Source of the DNA: an uncultured Alistipes sp.
GTDB lineage: Bacteria; Bacteroidota; Bacteroidia; Bacteroidales; Rikenellaceae
NCBI GenBank assembly: GCA_944321175.1
Contig: CALUKI010000008.1
Coordinates: forward strand, 1-64,000
DNA: 64,000 bases
Direction: 5' to 3'
Shown here: piece after piece, positions 2,494 to 39,590 of the stretch
How positions within the stretch are numbered: position 1 is the stretch's first letter
How the letters are laid out: the number at the start of each line of letters is the position of its first letter
Notes under the pieces: model-generated
What the model saw: only the letters and a program-made list of their open reading frames with translations
Told to the model about the DNA's origin: nothing
Databases searched by the model: none
Program-made: the position numbers and the translations under genes

Positions 2494-5400
2494 ATGAAAA
2501 AACTTCTATTAAGTACGTTGGCCGTGATGCTGGCAACGTTCTCCGGTTGCGAGTATGACGATACCGATGTTCAGGATCGTCTGGGCAATCTGGAAAACAA
2601 GGTTACGGAGATCGAGGCTCTTGTCAAATCTCTCAATACGGAGATTGAAACCCTGCAGGCCCTCATCGAGGGAAAACTCTTTATTACGGATGTGACGGAG
2701 AACGCTGACGGCAAGGGCTACACGCTGTCGCTCATATCCGATGCGGGAACCGTCTCGACCATCGTTATCGAAGACGGAGAGGACGGTCAGAAAGGTGATG
2801 ACGGTGCGACGCCCGATCTCGGTGTGAAACAGGACACCGACGGAAAGTATTACTGGACGATCGACGGCGAATTCATCGTTGTGGAGGGGAAGAAAATGCC
2901 TGTCAGCGGCGAGGATGGCGTGACGCCCGAATTCAAGGTCGAGAACAGCACGCTCTATGTCTCCTACGGCGACGGCAAGTGGGAGTCGTGCGGCCCGTTG
3001 TTCGATCTGGGCGCCCTCTCGCTTATCAAGGGCATTTCGCTCAGCGAGGATGGCCGTTATGTCCATCTGACACTTATCGACGATTCGGTGGTGACCTTCG
3101 AACTCTATAAGGGATTCGGCATCGCTTTCGAAACGACCTCCGATTTCCTGACACCCGGTCAGTCGGTCGATGTCCCGTTCGTGCTGACCGGCGCCGATGA
3201 GAATACGGTTGTCGAGGCGATTGCTCAAGGCAACTGGAAGGCTGAAGTGACGCTGGAGGGTACGACCGGCGGCAAAGTGACGGTTACGGCTCCCGAAGAT
3301 AGCGTTACGGGGCGCGTGATCGTGCTGGCAAACGACGGCGGCACGAAGACCGTCATGAAGACCCTGACGTTCCTCAGCGGTGTGATGAACGTATCGACCC
3401 AGTCGCAGGAGGTGTATAGAGCTGGCGGTACTGTAACTTTCGATATACAGACCAACCTCGAATATGAAGTGGTGATTCCGGAAGAGGCTTCATCGTGGAT
3501 TTCGGTGGCAGATACCCGCAGTGAAGTGCGCGATGAAACGCTGACCTTTACCGTCGGGGCCTATACGGATACCAAGGATCGTTCGGCGCTCGTCGAACTG
3601 ATCAGCAATGGATTCATTGTCGAGACGTTGCTTATTTATCAATGCTATACCTTCGATGATCCTGCTGCTTTCATATTGAAAGTCGTTCCGGCTTCGGCCG
3701 ACAAGACTGCGAGCCTGCCGCTGGCCGGTACGGTCGATGTGACGATCAACTGGGGTGACGGTACGGCCGAGGAGGCGGTAACGAACGTGGCCCCCACCCA
3801 TACCTATGCCGAAGCCAAGGAGTATATCGTGACGGTAAAGGGGTCTGTAAGCGAGCTGAACAACCTGAAGGTCAATACCAAATACAGATCGACGGTAACC
3901 GAGGTCCTGCAGTGGGGACAACTGGGTCTGACGTCGCTGAAGAGCGCTTTCGATACCAACAAGAGCCTCGTGTCGGTGGTTTTGCCGCCTGCGGAGGGTG
4001 CATTCGCCAAGGTGACTACGACGGAAAACATGTTCGACACCTGTACGGCGCTGGTATCCGTTCCGACCGGACTCCTCGACCAGTGCGCGCTGAACGAATC
4101 GGCCGCTTCGATGTTCTACAATTGCGAGAACCTCGCATCGATTCCTGCCGGACTGTTCGACGACTGTATCGCGATGACTTCGATCAAGTCCGCATTCAGC
4201 GGATGCGAGAAGCTGGCAAGCATACCCGACGGACTGTTCGACAACTTGACGGAGGTAACCGACATGTCGAACCTTTTCACTGACTGCAGTGCATTGGTGA
4301 GCCTGCCCGACGGAATATTCAAGAACCAGACGAAGGTGACGGCGATGAATACGCTGTTTTCGGGCTGTTCGTCGCTGAAGTCGGTTCCGGCCGATCTGTT
4401 CAAGTCGCAGACCGAGGTGACGGGCGCCGGAATGATCTTCAGGTATTGCTCGTCGCTGACGTCGTTGCCCGAAGGCATTTTCGATTCGTTTACGAAGGCG
4501 ACGAACATCAATTCGATGTTCTGCGGCTGTACGTCGATGGAGAACCTTCCCGCCGGCATCCTTTCGAAGGTCGGAACCGAAATGGCGGAAGGGGGCAAAC
4601 TGAACATCTCCTCGCTTTTCAAGGATTGCGTGAAGATGACCGAATTCCCGTCGCTGCCGAATGTGAAGATCGGAAATGTCGCAACCATGTGGCAGGGATG
4701 TACGGCCATGACGACGCTGCCGGCCGGATACTTCCCGCAGGATTGCGCTTCCTGTACTTCGATCGCCAACATGTTCAACGGCTGCACGTCGCTTCGGGCC
4801 ATACCGGCCGGACTGTTCGACGGATTTGCGGGCGTTACTTCTTCGTCGGCGGTATTCCAGGGCTGCACGTCGCTTGAGACGCTGCCCGAAGGCTTGTTCG
4901 ACGACATGGTCAAGCCGACGACCATCGCCAATATCTTCAAAGGGTGTACGGCTCTCGTCTCGCTGCCGGCAGGGCTCTTCGACTCCATGACGAAGATCAC
5001 GACGTTCACTTCGGCATTCGAAGGCTGTGCGAACTTCACCGGCGAATCGCCCTATACGATGGTCGGTGCGGATGACGGGCAGGTTAAAGTCCATCTTTAT
5101 GAGCGGGCCGATTATCCCGATCTGTTCACAGCGCCGAAAACCTATAAGTCGGTATTTACCGGTTGCGAGAAGATGGCCGATTATGCTTGGATTCCGATCG
5201 ATTGGGGCGGGATCAGTGACGGCACGATGGCCGCTCCGACCGTGACGATTACCTCCTCGAACCCCGAAGGTGAGGAGTATTATGCCCTGTCGTTCAATAT
5301 CAAAGGTACGGAATTCATCTCCGGTAAATACGCGTTCGGAACAAAGAGCGCAATGGATGAGGCTGTCGCTGAGTTCGATGGTGATTTAACCAAGGTCTGC

Positions 5401-6264
5401 AACCGTTATGGTGCGACGTTAAGCTCTTCACAACTTGCCGGCCTGATGTCGGAGTCGGGAATAACGTTAAATGCGTCGGATCTTGATGCCAATACGGAAT
5501 ATTCGCTGATCGTAGTGGGAACCAACGTACATGGTACTTGCAGCGAACGTTGCAATGCTGCAACTGCTGCATGGCCGCAGGGCGATCCGAATTACGAACG
5601 TTATGTAGGTACATGGACCGTAACGACAACTTCGTCGGAAGTGTCGCAGAAGCCTCAGACCTATACCGTTCAGATCGAGCCCTATCGTGTCAACGAAAGT
5701 TTCAAGATCTTTGATTGGGGCATTACGACCTTGGGCAGCCGGGAATACGACTCTCCCATCGTCATGAACTACAATGCTGCCGACGGAACGGTCGATGTGG
5801 ATTTGTACGACCCTCTGGGAATGTACTACTTCACCTACTACATCTATGCCCGTTACCGTTTCTATGATGAGGAGACTTCCGGATATATGTTGTGGATATC
5901 GAAAGATTCCCTTGTCGATATAGAGTATGCTTCCGACAAGGATGAGATTACGGTTACTTGCGGCTCCTTCAATCACGAGGGCTCCGATTATCAGGTTTCG
6001 GGATTCGATTACGTCCTGTATTATAACGGGTCGTATGCAATGGCAAAGGATCTGATTAAACCCGGATATCTGATCGATGATTCAGTGCCTGATTACGGGG
6101 TCGGTCCCTACACGTTGACCAAGACTGCCGCCGTGACGACCTCGGCGAGAACTCTTGGAACGTCGGAACCCGAATTCCTGAACGACAAGCTGCAGCCGTC
6201 GAAGAAACTTGTCAAGGATTTGCCGGTTGGAGCTTATGGCATGCGGATGATCTCCGTGCGATAG
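2494..6264 (+). CDS. Large surface lipoprotein with DUF4988-like N-terminus, BACON, PKD-like and BspA/DUF285 repeats
   Basis: A 1,256-residue predicted lipoprotein. The signal peptide MKKLLLSTLAVMLATFSGC ends in a lipobox Cys followed by acidic residues (EYDDTD), as in surface-exported Bacteroidota lipoproteins. After it come a short coiled coil (about residues 26-60), a DUF4988/PL29-N-like region with collagen-like EDGEDGQKGDDGATPD, a BACON-like domain (about 298-384), and a PKD-like segment (INWGDGTAEE, about 411-450). An array of about 12 repeats of 27 residues follows (about 513-845; pattern F-x-G-C-x-S-L-x-x-L-P-x-G-L-F-D), matching DUF285/BspA-type repeats. A fibronectin-like segment and a unique C-terminal domain end the protein. 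Probable role: binding of host or dietary ligands; no catalytic residues were recognised. ATG 2494 is chosen because it gives an ideal signal peptide; a GTG eight codons upstream is unlikely. Confidence 0.88.
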   Translation: MKKLLLSTLAVMLATFSGCEYDDTDVQDRLGNLENKVTEIEALVKSLNTEIETLQALIEGKLFITDVTENADGKGYTLSLISDAGTVSTIVIEDGEDGQKGDDGATPDLGVKQDTDGKYYWTIDGEFIVVEGKKMPVSGEDGVTPEFKVENSTLYVSYGDGKWESCGPLFDLGALSLIKGISLSEDGRYVHLTLIDDSVVTFELYKGFGIAFETTSDFLTPGQSVDVPFVLTGADENTVVEAIAQGNWKAEVTLEGTTGGKVTVTAPEDSVTGRVIVLANDGGTKTVMKTLTFLSGVMNVSTQSQEVYRAGGTVTFDIQTNLEYEVVIPEEASSWISVADTRSEVRDETLTFTVGAYTDTKDRSALVELISNGFIVETLLIYQCYTFDDPAAFILKVVPASADKTASLPLAGTVDVTINWGDGTAEEAVTNVAPTHTYAEAKEYIVTVKGSVSELNNLKVNTKYRSTVTEVLQWGQLGLTSLKSAFDTNKSLVSVVLPPAEGAFAKVTTTENMFDTCTALVSVPTGLLDQCALNESAASMFYNCENLASIPAGLFDDCIAMTSIKSAFSGCEKLASIPDGLFDNLTEVTDMSNLFTDCSALVSLPDGIFKNQTKVTAMNTLFSGCSSLKSVPADLFKSQTEVTGAGMIFRYCSSLTSLPEGIFDSFTKATNINSMFCGCTSMENLPAGILSKVGTEMAEGGKLNISSLFKDCVKMTEFPSLPNVKIGNVATMWQGCTAMTTLPAGYFPQDCASCTSIANMFNGCTSLRAIPAGLFDGFAGVTSSSAVFQGCTSLETLPEGLFDDMVKPTTIANIFKGCTALVSLPAGLFDSMTKITTFTSAFEGCANFTGESPYTMVGADDGQVKVHLYERADYPDLFTAPKTYKSVFTGCEKMADYAWIPIDWGGISDGTMAAPTVTITSSNPEGEEYYALSFNIKGTEFISGKYAFGTKSAMDEAVAEFDGDLTKVCNRYGATLSSSQLAGLMSESGITLNASDLDANTEYSLIVVGTNVHGTCSERCNAATAAWPQGDPNYERYVGTWTVTTTSSEVSQKPQTYTVQIEPYRVNESFKIFDWGITTLGSREYDSPIVMNYNAADGTVDVDLYDPLGMYYFTYYIYARYRFYDEETSGYMLWISKDSLVDIEYASDKDEITVTCGSFNHEGSDYQVSGFDYVLYYNGSYAMAKDLIKPGYLIDDSVPDYGVGPYTLTKTAAVTTSARTLGTSEPEFLNDKLQPSKKLVKDLPVGAYGMRMISVR

Positions 6265-36711: not shown

Positions 36712-37383
36712 TTATCGCATGGAATTCATGCGGATGCTGGCCTTGACAAGCGCGAGGGCCCGTATGCGTTTGATCTCCACCTCCTTGTCCGCGTGGTGCG
36801 GATTCTGGCTTACGAGTTTGACGTACCCTTCACGATCGGATTTCTGGATGTATTTTACCGTCACATACTCTTCGCCGTCAATATCGATCGACAACAGATA
36901 CATGTCCCCCCAAAAAACATCCCCGATGTCATGCAGCTGCTTGTAGAGGACGATGTCGCCGCTCTTCAGCAGCGGGTACATCGAATCGCCCACTACATAG
37001 ATCGCACCGTCGCATTTCGGAAGGTTGGGAATATGTATGTAGTTGATCGGTTTGTGCTGCCGCTGGTCGCTGAACAACGGAACCAGCCCCGCCGTCCCTT
37101 CGATCGAATAGAGCGGCACGCTCTGCAGCGGCAGGGAGTTGTCCGTCCTGTGCAGGTAGGAGGTCAGATCGGGTTCGGCATTGAACATCTCTCCCTGTCC
37201 CGTTTCAAGCCAGTCGGGGTTGACGTTCAATTCTTGAACGAGAATGTTGCGGTTGCGCGACGACAGCGCCGCTTTGCCCGTTTCGATCATCGACAGGGCG
37301 GCTTTCCCGATGCCAAGTCGTTGAGACAGCTGATCCTGCGTCATTCCTAACGCTTTTCGTATCAGTTTTACCCGCTCGTTCAT
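36712..37383 (-). CDS. Phage-type repressor: XRE helix-turn-helix with S24 peptidase domain
   Basis: A 223-residue lambda-CI/LexA-like repressor. The N-terminal helix-turn-helix (VKLIRKALGMTQDQLSQRLG, then KAALSMIETGKAALSSRN) is an XRE-type domain; the C-terminal half is an S24 signal-peptidase-like autocleavage domain with nucleophile Ser in VVGDSMYPLLKSGDIVLY and a candidate general-base Lys in VTVKYIQKSD. Such proteins cleave themselves when RecA is activated by DNA damage. It diverges from a 96-residue gene across a palindromic operator that it probably binds. The start at 37383 is preferred; longer frames run into the operator region. Confidence 0.88.
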   Translation of the reverse strand: MNERVKLIRKALGMTQDQLSQRLGIGKAALSMIETGKAALSSRNRNILVQELNVNPDWLETGQGEMFNAEPDLTSYLHRTDNSLPLQSVPLYSIEGTAGLVPLFSDQRQHKPINYIHIPNLPKCDGAIYVVGDSMYPLLKSGDIVLYKQLHDIGDVFWGDMYLLSIDIDGEEYVTVKYIQKSDREGYVKLVSQNPHHADKEVEIKRIRALALVKASIRMNSMR

Positions 37384-37415
37384 AATTCTTCTATTAGAAA
37401 AAACAATGCAAATAT

Positions 37416-37449
37416 TTGAACTTTTTATTGCAATGTTCAATTTTTGAAC
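37416..37449. promoter_or_regulatory. Repressor operator: palindrome with extra half-site
   Basis: The perfect 15-bp palindrome GTTCAATTTTTGAAC (37435-37449) is joined by a third TTGAAC half-site at 37416-37421. It covers the -33 regions of both divergent promoters, the arrangement expected for a phage-style repressor switch. Confidence 0.7.
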
Positions 37450-37458
37450 ATATATTTG
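37428..37458 (+). promoter_or_regulatory. Rightward promoter of the phage-like cassette
   Basis: TTG at 37428-37430 and a perfect TATATTTG at 37451-37458 (20-nt spacer). The palindromic operator fills the spacer, so bound repressor would block it. A weaker leftward -7 (AATATTTG, minus strand, 37409-37416) serves the repressor itself. Confidence 0.75.
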
Positions 37459-37523
37459 CATTCGCAAAGTTAAAATATTTATTTCTAATAACCAAATTTG
37501 TTTTTAAATCCCGTTCGTTTCAC

Positions 37524-37814
37524 ATGTATTGCGTATCATCCGAACTTTATGATGAGGTTGCCGCCCGTTTGTGCGACGCGATCGGATCGGGAGCCTACTT
37601 TTCGGGGACGATCGAATTTCCCCATGCCGACGTTGCCTGTCGCCTGACTGCATCGCTTCTCTTTTATCGCCGGCGCGAGATCTGGCCCGAAGGCGAACGT
37701 TCCTGCATTACGGATGTGATTCCCGTATGGTGGGAGTTCCACACCGTGATGCCCGAAGGCGAGGTGCTCAACGATTTCTCGTTCTCCGAACTGAAACGCT
37801 GGCTGACGGTATGA
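37524..37814 (+). CDS. Small acidic cytoplasmic protein under repressor control
   Basis: A 96-residue protein without signal peptide or membrane span (MYCVSSELYDEVAARLCDAI ... YRRREIWPEGERSCITDVIP ... VWWEFHTVMPEGEVLNDFSF). No domain was recognised. Position tells most: it is the first gene read from the rightward promoter that faces the S24 repressor, so by analogy with phages it could be an anti-repressor, Cro-like or early protein, though no helix-turn-helix is visible. The coding frame is compact and well bounded. A strong terminator follows about 100 nt later. Confidence 0.7.
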   Translation: MYCVSSELYDEVAARLCDAIGSGAYFSGTIEFPHADVACRLTASLLFYRRREIWPEGERSCITDVIPVWWEFHTVMPEGEVLNDFSFSELKRWLTV

Positions 37815-37820
37815 CCTCTT

Positions 37821-37870
37821 CGACGAAGTTCGCACGCTCATCTCGGAACGGCGGTTCCCGAACTTCGTCG
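37821..37870 (+). repeat. Large nested hairpin after the 96-aa gene
   Basis: A 12-bp stem (CGACGAAGTTCG at 37821-37832 with CGAACTTCGTCG at 37859-37870) encloses a smaller GGAAC/GTTCC hairpin. It lies between the small gene and the terminator and could be a 3' structured element. Confidence 0.65.
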
Positions 37871-37915
37871 GTGTGACAGGCTGCCTGCCGGGCCGCCGCC
37901 CAGAAGTCTGTTTCG

Positions 37916-37946
37916 GGGCCGTCCGAAATGTCGGACGGCCCTTTTT
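37916..37946 (+). terminator. Intrinsic terminator between the small protein and terL
   Basis: An 11-bp GC-rich stem (37916-37926 with 37931-37941) is followed by TTTTT. It separates the repressor-controlled gene from the terminase gene. Confidence 0.92.
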
Positions 37947-38085
37947 CCCTTGCCGGCCAGACCCTGTTGCAACTGCAATCGCTCCTGCTTTGCCGTTGTG
38001 CGGATTTTCGGCCTTTCCATGCCGCGCGGATTCCGGCCATTGGGATCTTCGCTGTTTCACCTGCTGTTTTCTCCGATTTTTATCC

Positions 38086-39495
38086 ATGACGCACTCATTT
38101 GTCGATTTTGCCCGAACCGTCTATCCGTTTTTGGAACTGGAACGGTTCCATTGCAACTACTACCGCGTGTTGGAGGCTTTTGCCGAAGGCCGTATCCGGC
38201 GCCTGATGATTACCATGCCGCCCCAACACGGCAAGAGTGTCGGTGCGACAACGCTGCTGCCGGCCTATCTGCTCGGATTGGATCCCGACCTGCGGATCGC
38301 CATTGCCTCCTATTCCGCGTCGCTGGCTTCGAAATTCAACCGCCGCGTGCAGCGGATCCTCGAATCGCAGGAGTATGGCGGGCTGTTTCCCGCCACGACG
38401 ATCAAACGCGGTTCGAAACCTGCGAATTACATCCGTACAGCCGATGAGGTGGAGATCGTCGGACACGAAGGAGGCCTTCTGTCGGTCGGCCGCGAGGGGT
38501 CGCTTACCGGCAACCGTGTCGATTGCTTCCTGCTCGACGACCTCTACAAGGATGCGATGGAGGCCAATTCTCCGATTGTCCGCGAGAACTGTTGGGAGTG
38601 GTACACCTCGGTGGTGCGCACCCGCATGCACAACGCTTCGCGGGAGCTGATGGTCTTCACGCGCTGGCATGAGGAGGATCTCATCGGCATGTTGCGGCGC
38701 CGCGAACGGGTTGTCGAACTGCGTGCGTGGAGCGATCTCGATCGGGTGCCGGCCGACGGCTGGCTGTCGCTCGACTTCGAGGCGCTCAAGGCTTCGGCCC
38801 CCTGCGAGGTCGATCCGCGCGCGGCCGGCGAAGCGTTGTGGCCGTCGCGGCATGATGCGGCGCTGCTGCGCGCCAAACGGGCGCTCGATCCGCTGCGTTT
38901 CGAGTGCATGTATCAAGGACATCCCTCCGTGCGTGAAGGGCTGCTTTACGGCGATCAGTTTGCCGAGTACGATCTCCTGCCGAGCGAGATCGTCCGCCGC
39001 GCCAACTATACCGATACGGCCGATATGGGCGACGACTACCTCTGTTCGCTGTCGTATGCCGTCGATGCCGACGGTGTGATCTATGTCACCGACGCCGTCT
39101 ATTCGCGCGAGGCAATGGAGGTGACCGAAGGGCTGGTTGCGGAGATGCTGCTGCGCAGCGACACCCGTTCGGCGGCCATCGAGAGCAACAACGGCGGCCG
39201 CGGATTCGCACGCGCCGTGCAGCGGCTCGCTCCGGGGGTGCGCATCGAGTGGTTTCACCAAAGCGCAAACAAGGAGGCGCGGATCCTCTCCAACTCCGCG
39301 ACCGTTCTCCATGCGATCCGCATGCCGCGCGGCTGGAACCTCCGTTGGCCCGAACTCTATGCCCATTTGACGACCTACCGGCGACAGTTCCGGTCGAATC
39401 GCCGGCATGATGCTCCCGATGTGCTGACCGGCATTGTCGAACGCGAGATAACGGGAATCCGGCAGGGGCAGTGTCGGGCCTATACCTTCTTTTGA
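38086..39495 (+). CDS. Phage terminase large subunit (orphan)
   Basis: A 469-residue DNA-packaging motor of the TerL family. The ATPase half has the adenine-binding/Walker A region TMPPQHGKSVGATTLLPAYL (near residue 40), Walker B in CFLLDDLYKDAME, and a coupling motif around VFTRWHEEDLIG. The nuclease half keeps acidic residues in SYAVDADGVIYVTDAVYS, AAIESNNGGRGFARAVQRL and RRHDAPDVLTGIV. Both halves look intact, so it could be active. It is unusual that no small terminase, portal, capsid, tail, lysis or integrase gene is within view on either side. ATG 38086 is chosen because upstream codons are Cys/Arg/Pro-rich; no promoter match was found ahead of it. Confidence 0.85.
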   Translation: MTHSFVDFARTVYPFLELERFHCNYYRVLEAFAEGRIRRLMITMPPQHGKSVGATTLLPAYLLGLDPDLRIAIASYSASLASKFNRRVQRILESQEYGGLFPATTIKRGSKPANYIRTADEVEIVGHEGGLLSVGREGSLTGNRVDCFLLDDLYKDAMEANSPIVRENCWEWYTSVVRTRMHNASRELMVFTRWHEEDLIGMLRRRERVVELRAWSDLDRVPADGWLSLDFEALKASAPCEVDPRAAGEALWPSRHDAALLRAKRALDPLRFECMYQGHPSVREGLLYGDQFAEYDLLPSEIVRRANYTDTADMGDDYLCSLSYAVDADGVIYVTDAVYSREAMEVTEGLVAEMLLRSDTRSAAIESNNGGRGFARAVQRLAPGVRIEWFHQSANKEARILSNSATVLHAIRMPRGWNLRWPELYAHLTTYRRQFRSNRRHDAPDVLTGIVEREITGIRQGQCRAYTFF

Positions 39496-39546
39496 AAAGG
39501 GCCGTGTTTCCGGCCCGCTCCCCGTCCGTTCCATTCATAGACCTGA

Positions 39547-39590
39547 GGATGACAAAGCCCCGTTGCAGCTGCAACGGGGCTTTGTCATCC
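39547..39590. terminator. 44-bp perfect palindrome between convergent terL and the DUF2723 gene
   Basis: Positions 39547-39568 are the exact reverse complement of 39569-39590, with no loop. The stem ends CGGGGCTTTGTC on both strands, the form of a bidirectional intrinsic terminator. Confidence 0.85.

What the first reader, a model, noticed from the sequence alone, without database searches (positions are those of the whole stretch)
36712..39590. Isolated phage-like module: S24 repressor, palindromic switch, 96-aa protein and an intact terminase large subunit with no other phage genes
The sequence shows an XRE-S24 repressor gene divergent from a small gene, with a perfect 15-bp palindrome over the promoter overlap, a terminator, then a terL-like gene whose ATPase and nuclease residues are all present. 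On either side are ordinary housekeeping genes (korAB and DUF2723). Decaying prophages usually lose such residues. This may be a domesticated, DNA-damage-responsive module (gene-transfer-agent-like, defence, or satellite-related). It could also be a prophage remnant; no attachment sites or integrase were seen.
Basis: partly seen in the sequence, partly recalled or inferred. Interest (0 to 1): 0.7.

Follow-up and report, generated by a model that had tools for sequence, protein, structure and literature searches.

The report
Split gene transfer agent in Alistipes
A lone viral DNA-packaging gene in a gut bacterium is kept across its bacterial family together with a separate set of viral shell genes, and the two likely form an inherited virus-like particle that would carry the bacterium's own DNA between cells.

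Summary
In detail: an XRE-S24 repressor, a palindromic divergent promoter, a 96-aa gene (p96) and an intact terminase large subunit (TerL) lie between korAB and DUF2723. It does not behave like a remnant. All three genes are in 77 of 80 related loci; the other three are cut by contig ends. TerL is in 227 of 250 genomes of the family, Rikenellaceae. Its ATPase and nuclease residues are invariant in 144 sequences, 117 distinct; dN/dS is 0.064.

"No other phage genes" is true of the window, not of the genome. Another contig holds a 9.3-kb cluster (head protease, capsid-like protein, portal, neck, holin, endolysin) without a terminase. Its portal is also in 227 of 250 genomes and co-occurs with TerL (both 218, neither 14; Fisher p 1.6e-11). 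In two genera that branch first, TerL sits beside the head genes; in one, S24 is divergent from that operon. Chromosomal TerLs form one clade apart from phages.

Best reading: a domesticated phage split into two loci, likely a gene transfer agent, by my searches the first candidate in Bacteroidota. Packaging and delivery of host DNA are untested; no tape-measure gene was found.

The parts
36712..37383 (-). XRE-S24 repressor gene (223 aa), predicted self-cleaving
   Evidence: divergent S24 in 77 of 77 loci that hold one; cleavage-site and dyad letters conserved in at least 90% of 109 distinct sequences
37226..37238 (.). second copy of the operator-like core TTCAANNNTTGAA, inside the repressor gene
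   Evidence: one of only two places in the genome
37433..37451 (.). operator-like palindrome ATGTTCAATTTTTGAACAT between the divergent genes
   Evidence: core exact in 30 of 71 and recognisable in 45 to 56 of 71 related promoters
37451..37458 (+). -7 box TATATTTG of the p96-terL promoter (predicted)
   Evidence: sequence and consensus of 71 related promoters; box type recalled
37465..37472 (-). -7 box TAACTTTG of the repressor promoter (predicted)
   Evidence: sequence and consensus; box type recalled
37524..37814 (+). p96, 96-aa protein of unknown function, first gene downstream of the operator
   Evidence: no Pfam or PHROG family; 124 relatives; P66-T73 core PVWWE and NDF motif invariant in 46 of 46 aligned
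37915..37942 (+). terminator-like hairpin between p96 and terL
   Evidence: terminator-like in 13 of 49 relatives with a gap over 60 bp, while 23 of 72 have a gap of 60 bp or less
38086..39495 (+). terminase large subunit (469 aa), packaging motor
   Evidence: phrog_38 E 1e-84; invariant Walker and nuclease residues; dN/dS 0.064
39547..39590 (.). 44-bp perfect palindrome between convergent terL and DUF2723, probably a two-way terminator
   Evidence: self-match on the other strand over 44 bases at 100%

Best explanation
The window's terminase occurs together with a phage-type portal gene from another part of the genome in 218 of 250 family genomes, and the two loci likely form one domesticated, split gene transfer agent for which this locus is predicted to supply the packaging motor and its switch. 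Shown: the S24-p96-TerL trio keeps its order and orientation; a head cluster (protease, capsid-like protein, portal, neck, holin, endolysin) is conserved in the genus; TerL sits beside such head genes in two genera that branch first; chromosomal TerLs form one clade; both loci are under purifying selection. Inferred: one phage was domesticated in an ancestor of the family as a single operon; the terminase part was later separated from the head genes in the ancestor of most genera, and the tape-measure gene was lost. Predicted: the S24 repressor binds TTCAANNNTTGAA and holds the p96-terL promoter off; DNA damage would trigger its self-cleavage; TerL would fill heads made from the other cluster with host DNA; holin and endolysin would release them. 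Not explained: how the head cluster is switched on (it has its own conserved promoter without that operator) and what p96 does.
For: Trio in 77 of 80 loci, S24 divergent in 77 of 77. TerL in 57 of 60 genomes of the genus besides the own, 0 of 40 of other families; in 227 of 250 of the family. Head cluster of 11 genes without stops in the own genome: protease phrog_94 E 2e-39, portal phrog_11226 E 8e-19, capsid-like phrog_1623 E 6e-5, holin PF05105 E 1e-8, neck-like DUF6712 E 3e-9, endolysin phrog_873 E 6e-47. Co-occurrence of TerL and portal over the same 250 genomes: 218 / 9 / 9 / 14, p 1.6e-11. Linked loci in G107 and G127 (g48) and G113 (g54), the last with S24 divergent. A prophage in G006 with TerL and the same structural genes in nearly the same order. 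TerL and portal trees agree (RF 0.52 against a null minimum of 0.91). One chromosomal clade, support 0.97. dN/dS 0.064 TerL, 0.067 capsid-like, 0.081 portal. G043 lacks a TerL hit, and its portal and hub genes hold in-frame stops.
Against: No particle, packaged DNA or transfer has been seen. No tape-measure homologue in 18 genus genomes (such proteins diverge fast). No S24 operator at 26 head clusters, so joint control is unexplained. Nine genomes have TerL without a portal hit and nine the reverse, among them G146 (99% complete, TerL, no portal). TerL is broken or in pieces in at least G105, G106, G171 and G008. No small terminase found in Alistipes. A long-read study of particle-packed DNA from three human donors found Rikenellaceae abundant in total DNA, but the passages I saw name other families for GTA-like packaging (PMC12946183).
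Confidence: 0.66

Rival explanations
1. The two loci make one domesticated particle, but it does not transfer genes: it kills or lyses rivals as PBSX is said to, interferes with infecting phages, or handles DNA inside the cell.
For: Same genomic evidence as the best explanation; no tape measure found, so delivery of DNA is doubtful; a GTA-like element that does not inject DNA exists (PBSX, as described in PMC12946183, passage).
Against: A killer particle would need tail parts rather than a conserved motor, portal, protease and capsid-like protein; all four are kept under purifying selection.
Confidence: 0.18
2. The S24-p96-TerL locus has a chromosomal job of its own (for example damage-induced DNA cutting or phage defence), and its co-occurrence with the head cluster only reflects shared ancestry.
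For: The loci lie far apart, for example 216 kb on one contig in G108, and have different promoters.
Against: TerL is beside the head genes in g48 and g54; four genera lack both; the TerL-less G043 has a broken portal.
Confidence: 0.07
3. A phage satellite like a capsid-forming PICI, with its own heads and borrowed tails.
For: Head and packaging genes without a recognised tape measure.
Against: Vertical descent at two separate loci across a family; that such satellites are integrative and mobile is recalled. An integrase was not searched for as such.
Confidence: 0.04
4. A decaying prophage remnant.
For: Loss of a tape measure; in-frame stops or pieces in a few genomes.
Against: Catalytic residues invariant in 144 sequences, 117 distinct; dN/dS 0.06 to 0.21 in the nine genes computed; TerL and portal each in 106 of 110 high-quality genomes.
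Confidence: 0.03

Closest known systems
RcGTA of Rhodobacter capsulatus
   Different: Here the large terminase is outside the head cluster, with its own S24 repressor and p96; no tape measure was found; host is a different phylum. Sequence kinship to RcGTA was not tested.
FpGTA of Faecalibacterium
   Same: Small (10.5 kb) GTA-like operon in a gut commensal with TerL, portal and capsid genes (PMC12946183, abstract and passages).
   Different: FpGTA keeps TerS and TerL in the operon and its packaging was observed; here the element is split, in Bacteroidota, and activity is unknown.
PBSX of Bacillus subtilis
   Same: Chromosomal phage-like element that packages 13.4-kb host fragments (passage).
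   Different: PBSX is described as acting like a tailocin; here no tape measure was found and the locus is split.
Bacteroides phage B40-8 and relatives (TerL)
   Same: Closest TerLs among 50,697 phage records, 46-48% identical.
   Different: The B40-8 portal family is absent from the own genome and present in 1 of 31 genomes, so the head genes are of another kind.
Prophage in G006:C31
   Same: TerL, tail genes, hub, protease, capsid-like protein, portal and neck in nearly the same order.
   Different: Has TerS, a tape measure and early-type genes; its TerL branches outside the chromosomal clade.

Membership tests
Gene transfer agent | Phage-derived genes carried on the chromosome by vertical descent | tested here: met
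   TerL and portal each in 227 of 250 family genomes; concordant trees; one chromosomal clade
Gene transfer agent | Maintained by purifying selection | tested here: met
   dN/dS 0.064 to 0.214 in eight element genes against 0.105 in host gene DUF2723, one genome pair
Gene transfer agent | Has packaging motor, portal, protease and capsid | tested here: met
   TerL, protease and portal by family; capsid weaker: phrog_1623 E 6e-5 and a partial model with HK97-type best hits, none below E 0.001
Gene transfer agent | No replication or integration genes in the element | tested here: inconclusive
   None among the 3 genes here and the 11 of the cluster by Pfam and PHROG; integrases were not searched for as such
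Gene transfer agent | Packages fragments of host DNA rather than its own genes | not testable with these tools
   needs sequencing of particle DNA
Gene transfer agent | Delivers DNA to recipient cells | not testable with these tools
   no tape-measure homologue found in 18 genus genomes
Complete prophage | Self-contained phage genome at the locus | tested here: not met
   three genes between host genes; no attachment-site search was made
Capsid-forming PICI | Mobile, integrase-bearing island (recalled) | tested here: not met
   vertical descent at two separate loci; integrase itself not searched for
LexA-type SOS regulon | Operator repeated at many damage genes | tested here: not met
   exact core at two places in the genome, both in this locus; degenerate sites were not searched genome-wide
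S24/CI-type self-cleaving repressor | XRE helix-turn-helix, Ala-Gly cleavage site and Ser-Lys dyad | tested here: met
   Pfam domains; the TAG, GDS and K letters kept in at least 90% of 109 distinct sequences; roles of the letters recalled, cleavage untested

The most novel reading that the evidence does not exclude
Rikenellaceae carry an ancient, family-wide gene transfer agent, the first in Bacteroidota: its motor locus, under a dedicated self-cleaving repressor, has been uncoupled from its head-and-lysis operon, and its particle has lost the tape measure, so that host DNA is packed into short-tailed or tailless heads and spread among common gut commensals.
Probability: 0.5. Interest if true: 0.92.

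Novelty: new variant of a known kind. Interest (0 to 1): 0.86.

Why it matters
Few gene transfer agents are known, mostly in Alphaproteobacteria (PMC12946183, passage), and my searches of open papers showed none described for Bacteroidota. One kept across the family of Alistipes would be an unrecognised route of gene flow in the gut. It would also explain a survey's remark that Alistipes strains nearly all carry prophages but almost only incomplete ones (PMC10841027, passage). Three of the 80 TerL loci are NZ_ records of named strains (Alistipes montrealensis kh20, Alistipes sp. Marseille-P5061, Alistipes sp. CHKCI003), so the idea can be tested in culture, though I did not look for the head cluster in those records. 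The split gives a clean handle: the motor can be removed without touching the heads.

Tried and rejected
p96: no Pfam or PHROG family, one weak hit in 50,697 phage records, no PDB fold match below E 0.001 although the model is confident (pLDDT 94); its function stays open. Kinship of p96 with the 78-aa G113 gene or a 100-aa G006 prophage gene was tested and is not significant (E 0.1 or worse). The 88-aa G113 gene as a shortened small terminase rests on its position, on recurrence in g48 (tblastn E 0.001 to 0.003) and on a weak match to phrog_645 (E 0.019), a family whose member in B40-8 lies just upstream of TerL; not claimed. PDB sequence search with TerL gave only TAL-repeat artefacts; the capsid profile gave one non-significant chaperonin hit. 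A B40-8-type portal as partner was rejected. A genome-wide SOS regulon was rejected on exact sites. The HK97-type portal and capsid on C32 of the own genome look like an ordinary prophage and were set aside.

Limits of the counts: TerL alignment: 144 chromosomal sequences come partly from the same genomes in two collections; 117 are distinct; three partial loci (L135, L141, L142) were left out beforehand and one kept sequence (L136) has an in-frame stop written as X. Co-occurrence: each leave three negative genomes unnamed; I took them to be G177, G182, G205 and G180, G182, G205 by comparing the lists, and the 218/9/9/14 table depends on that. Head-cluster regions were chosen by their portal hits, so portal presence in them is not independent. 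The S24 tree used 29 of 36 taxa and had no shuffled control. The TerL tree is rooted on one phage. Five of 27 head clusters had no TATATTTG box in the stretch examined.
Full report
WHAT IS IN THE WINDOW. On the minus strand lies an XRE-S24 repressor (36712-37383). Divergent from it lies a 96-aa gene, p96 (37524-37814), and after a hairpin a 469-aa terminase large subunit, TerL (38086-39495). The palindrome ATGTTCAATTTTTGAACAT (37433-37451) lies between the divergent genes. Its core pattern TTCAANNNTTGAA occurs at two places in the whole 2.36-Mb genome, both here: at the promoter and inside the repressor gene. By exact sites the switch is local, not a genome-wide SOS regulon.

IT DOES NOT BEHAVE LIKE A REMNANT. 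S24, p96 and TerL are all present in 77 of 80, and the other three are cut by contig ends; S24 is divergent in 77 of 77. The neighbours are ordinary chromosomal genes by my reading; korA or korB is in the fetched stretch in 34 of 80. TerL is in 57 of 60 genomes of the genus besides the own and in 0 of 40 from other families of the order, and in 227 of 250 of the family (106 of 110 high-quality genomes, 18 of 22 genera). The operator core is exact in 30 of 71 p96 promoters and recognisable in 45 to 56. Walker A PPQHGKS, Walker B D151-D152 and nuclease residues D310, D313, E366, D442 and D445 are invariant in 144 chromosomal TerL sequences, 117 of them distinct (the roles of the residues are recalled). 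Against the nearest relative, G219, dN/dS is 0.064 for TerL and 0.105 for the host neighbour DUF2723. In IMG/VR only two TerL relatives matched the query patterns, the better at 48%. Against this: in G105, G106, G171 and G008 TerL is in pieces or holds an in-frame stop.

THE MISSING PHAGE GENES ARE ELSEWHERE IN THE GENOME. A portal search (PF04860) gave, besides ordinary prophage portals, a weak match in 18 of 19 genomes of the genus and in 0 of 12 others. In the own genome it lies on contig C2, in a run of eleven genes on one strand, C2:86149-95447: two tail-like genes, a 793-aa hub-like gene, an 84-aa gene, a head maturation protease, a 327-aa capsid-like protein, a 155-aa gene, the portal, a DUF6712 neck-like gene, a holin and an endolysin, all without internal stops ('tail-like' and 'hub' are my labels from order and size, with no family match). 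There is no terminase in it. Compared with 14 other genus genomes, taken at their portal hits, hub, protease, capsid-like gene, portal, neck and endolysin are found in 14 of 14, tail2 in 13, holin in 12, the 155-aa gene in 7, tail1 and the 84-aa gene in 6; the flanking host genes are shared by at most 6 of 14. The capsid call is the weakest: phrog_1623 at E 6e-5, the place between protease and portal, and a partial model (pLDDT 58.7) whose best fold hits are HK97-type capsids and encapsulins, none below E 0.001.

THE TWO LOCI BELONG TOGETHER. The portal is in 227 of the same 250 genomes. Both genes are in 218, neither in 14, one only in 9 and 9 (Fisher p 1.6e-11; among the 110 high-quality genomes 104, 2, 2, 2 and p 0.006). 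Four genera (eight genomes) lack both. G043 has a portal hit, no TerL hit and a weak S24 hit; its portal and hub each hold an in-frame stop. In the other direction, G146 is 99% complete and has TerL but no portal hit. In genera g48 and g54 TerL is beside head genes: G107 has TerL, protease, capsid, portal, neck; G127 has TerL, capsid, portal, neck, with the protease after them; in G113 an S24 gene is divergent from an operon of a 78-aa gene, an 88-aa gene, TerL, a 78-aa gene, protease, capsid, portal and a neck-like gene, with host genes on both sides and no hub or tail hit. A prophage in G006 carries TerS, TerL, tail genes, hub, tape measure, an 84-aa-like gene, protease, capsid, a 171-aa gene, portal and neck in nearly the order of the C2 cluster. 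Rooted on phage B40-8, the 144 chromosomal TerLs form one clade (support 0.97) apart from that prophage and other phage-like copies, and g48 with g54 branch first (0.98; the rest 0.99). TerL and portal trees of 36 taxa agree far beyond chance (RF 0.52 against a null minimum of 0.91; patristic rho 0.85). Where both lie on one contig they can be far apart, 216 kb in G108 for example; in the own genome they are on different contigs. The simplest history is one domestication as a single operon in an ancestor of the family, then one separation of the terminase part in the ancestor of most genera.

HOW IT LIKELY WORKS. The S24 protein keeps the letters of the presumed cleavage site and Ser-Lys dyad in at least 90% of 109 distinct sequences, so DNA damage should make it cut itself (predicted). 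That would release p96 and TerL. TerL would dock on the portal of heads made from the second locus and fill them with host DNA; holin and endolysin would release them. This is the plan of a gene transfer agent. Unexplained: what switches on the head operon, which has its own promoter (TTGAC-N17-22-TATATTTG in 22 of 27, with an upstream inverted repeat in 9 of 27) and no S24 operator in 26 of 26 clusters examined; what p96 does; why a terminator-like hairpin separates p96 from terL here while the gap is 60 bp or less in 23 of 72 relatives; and how DNA would be delivered without a tape measure (0 of 18 genus genomes other than G006).

COMPARISON AND NOVELTY. RcGTA is likewise spread over at least five loci (PMC7947584, passage). 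[quoted passage not shown] That text does not contain the word Alistipes and names Rikenellaceae once, as abundant in total DNA; the passages I saw assign GTA-like packaging to Ruminococcaceae, Oscillospiraceae and Christensenellaceae, and lateral transduction to Bacteroides, which counts against strong activity in those donors. A study of a sorted virus fraction lists Alistipes among the most frequent genera of its unassembled reads (PMC4568480, passages), weak support at best. Searches pairing gene transfer agents with Bacteroidetes, Bacteroidota, Alistipes or Rikenellaceae in 5.39 million open papers showed none described for this phylum (listings only, apart from the papers named; preprints and most subscription journals are not held). 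A prophage survey notes that Alistipes strains nearly all carry prophages, almost only incomplete ones, and suggests domestication (PMC10841027, passages), which fits. I rate it a new variant of a known kind, its function still to be shown.

Noticed in passing
G000:C2 upstream of 86149 (L167) and 26 related clusters: The head operon has its own conserved promoter (TTGAC-N17-22-TATATTTG in 22 of 27) and in 9 of 27 a strict inverted repeat TTTTC...GAAAA just upstream, a possible site of an unknown regulator.
   Followed up: partly
G006:C31 about 20-53 kb (L185, L162, L188): A prophage with TerS, a TerL 58% identical to the window's, tape measure and the same structural genes: a living relative of the domesticated element.
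   Followed up: partly
G043:C26 (L212): Head cluster with in-frame stops in portal and hub, in a genome with no TerL hit: possible correlated decay.
   Followed up: partly
L216-L219 and L221-L224 (IMG/VR contigs of 4-13 kb): Contigs filed as viral that consist of the head cluster and carry no TerL hit; probably chromosomal pieces, one with host-like ORFs on both sides.
   Followed up: partly
MT837081.1 (L148), 5144-5416: The only phage record with a p96 relative (38% identical) is an unverified 7.8-kb scaffold with no hit to S24, TerL or the head genes.
   Followed up: partly
G000:C2:95156-96652: An ORF that I read as ComEC-like (recalled, not scanned) follows the head cluster directly; it has a match in 4 of 14 genus regions. 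DNA uptake beside a DNA-export element would be worth a look.
   Followed up: no
G000:C32:5618-8501 (L151): The own genome also holds a strong HK97-type portal and capsid, probably an ordinary prophage.
   Followed up: no
leader of the head operon in several genomes: A recurrent TTATCAACA (TTATCCACA in G007), like a DnaA box, a few dozen bases after the TATATTTG box (sequences printed; not counted).
   Followed up: no
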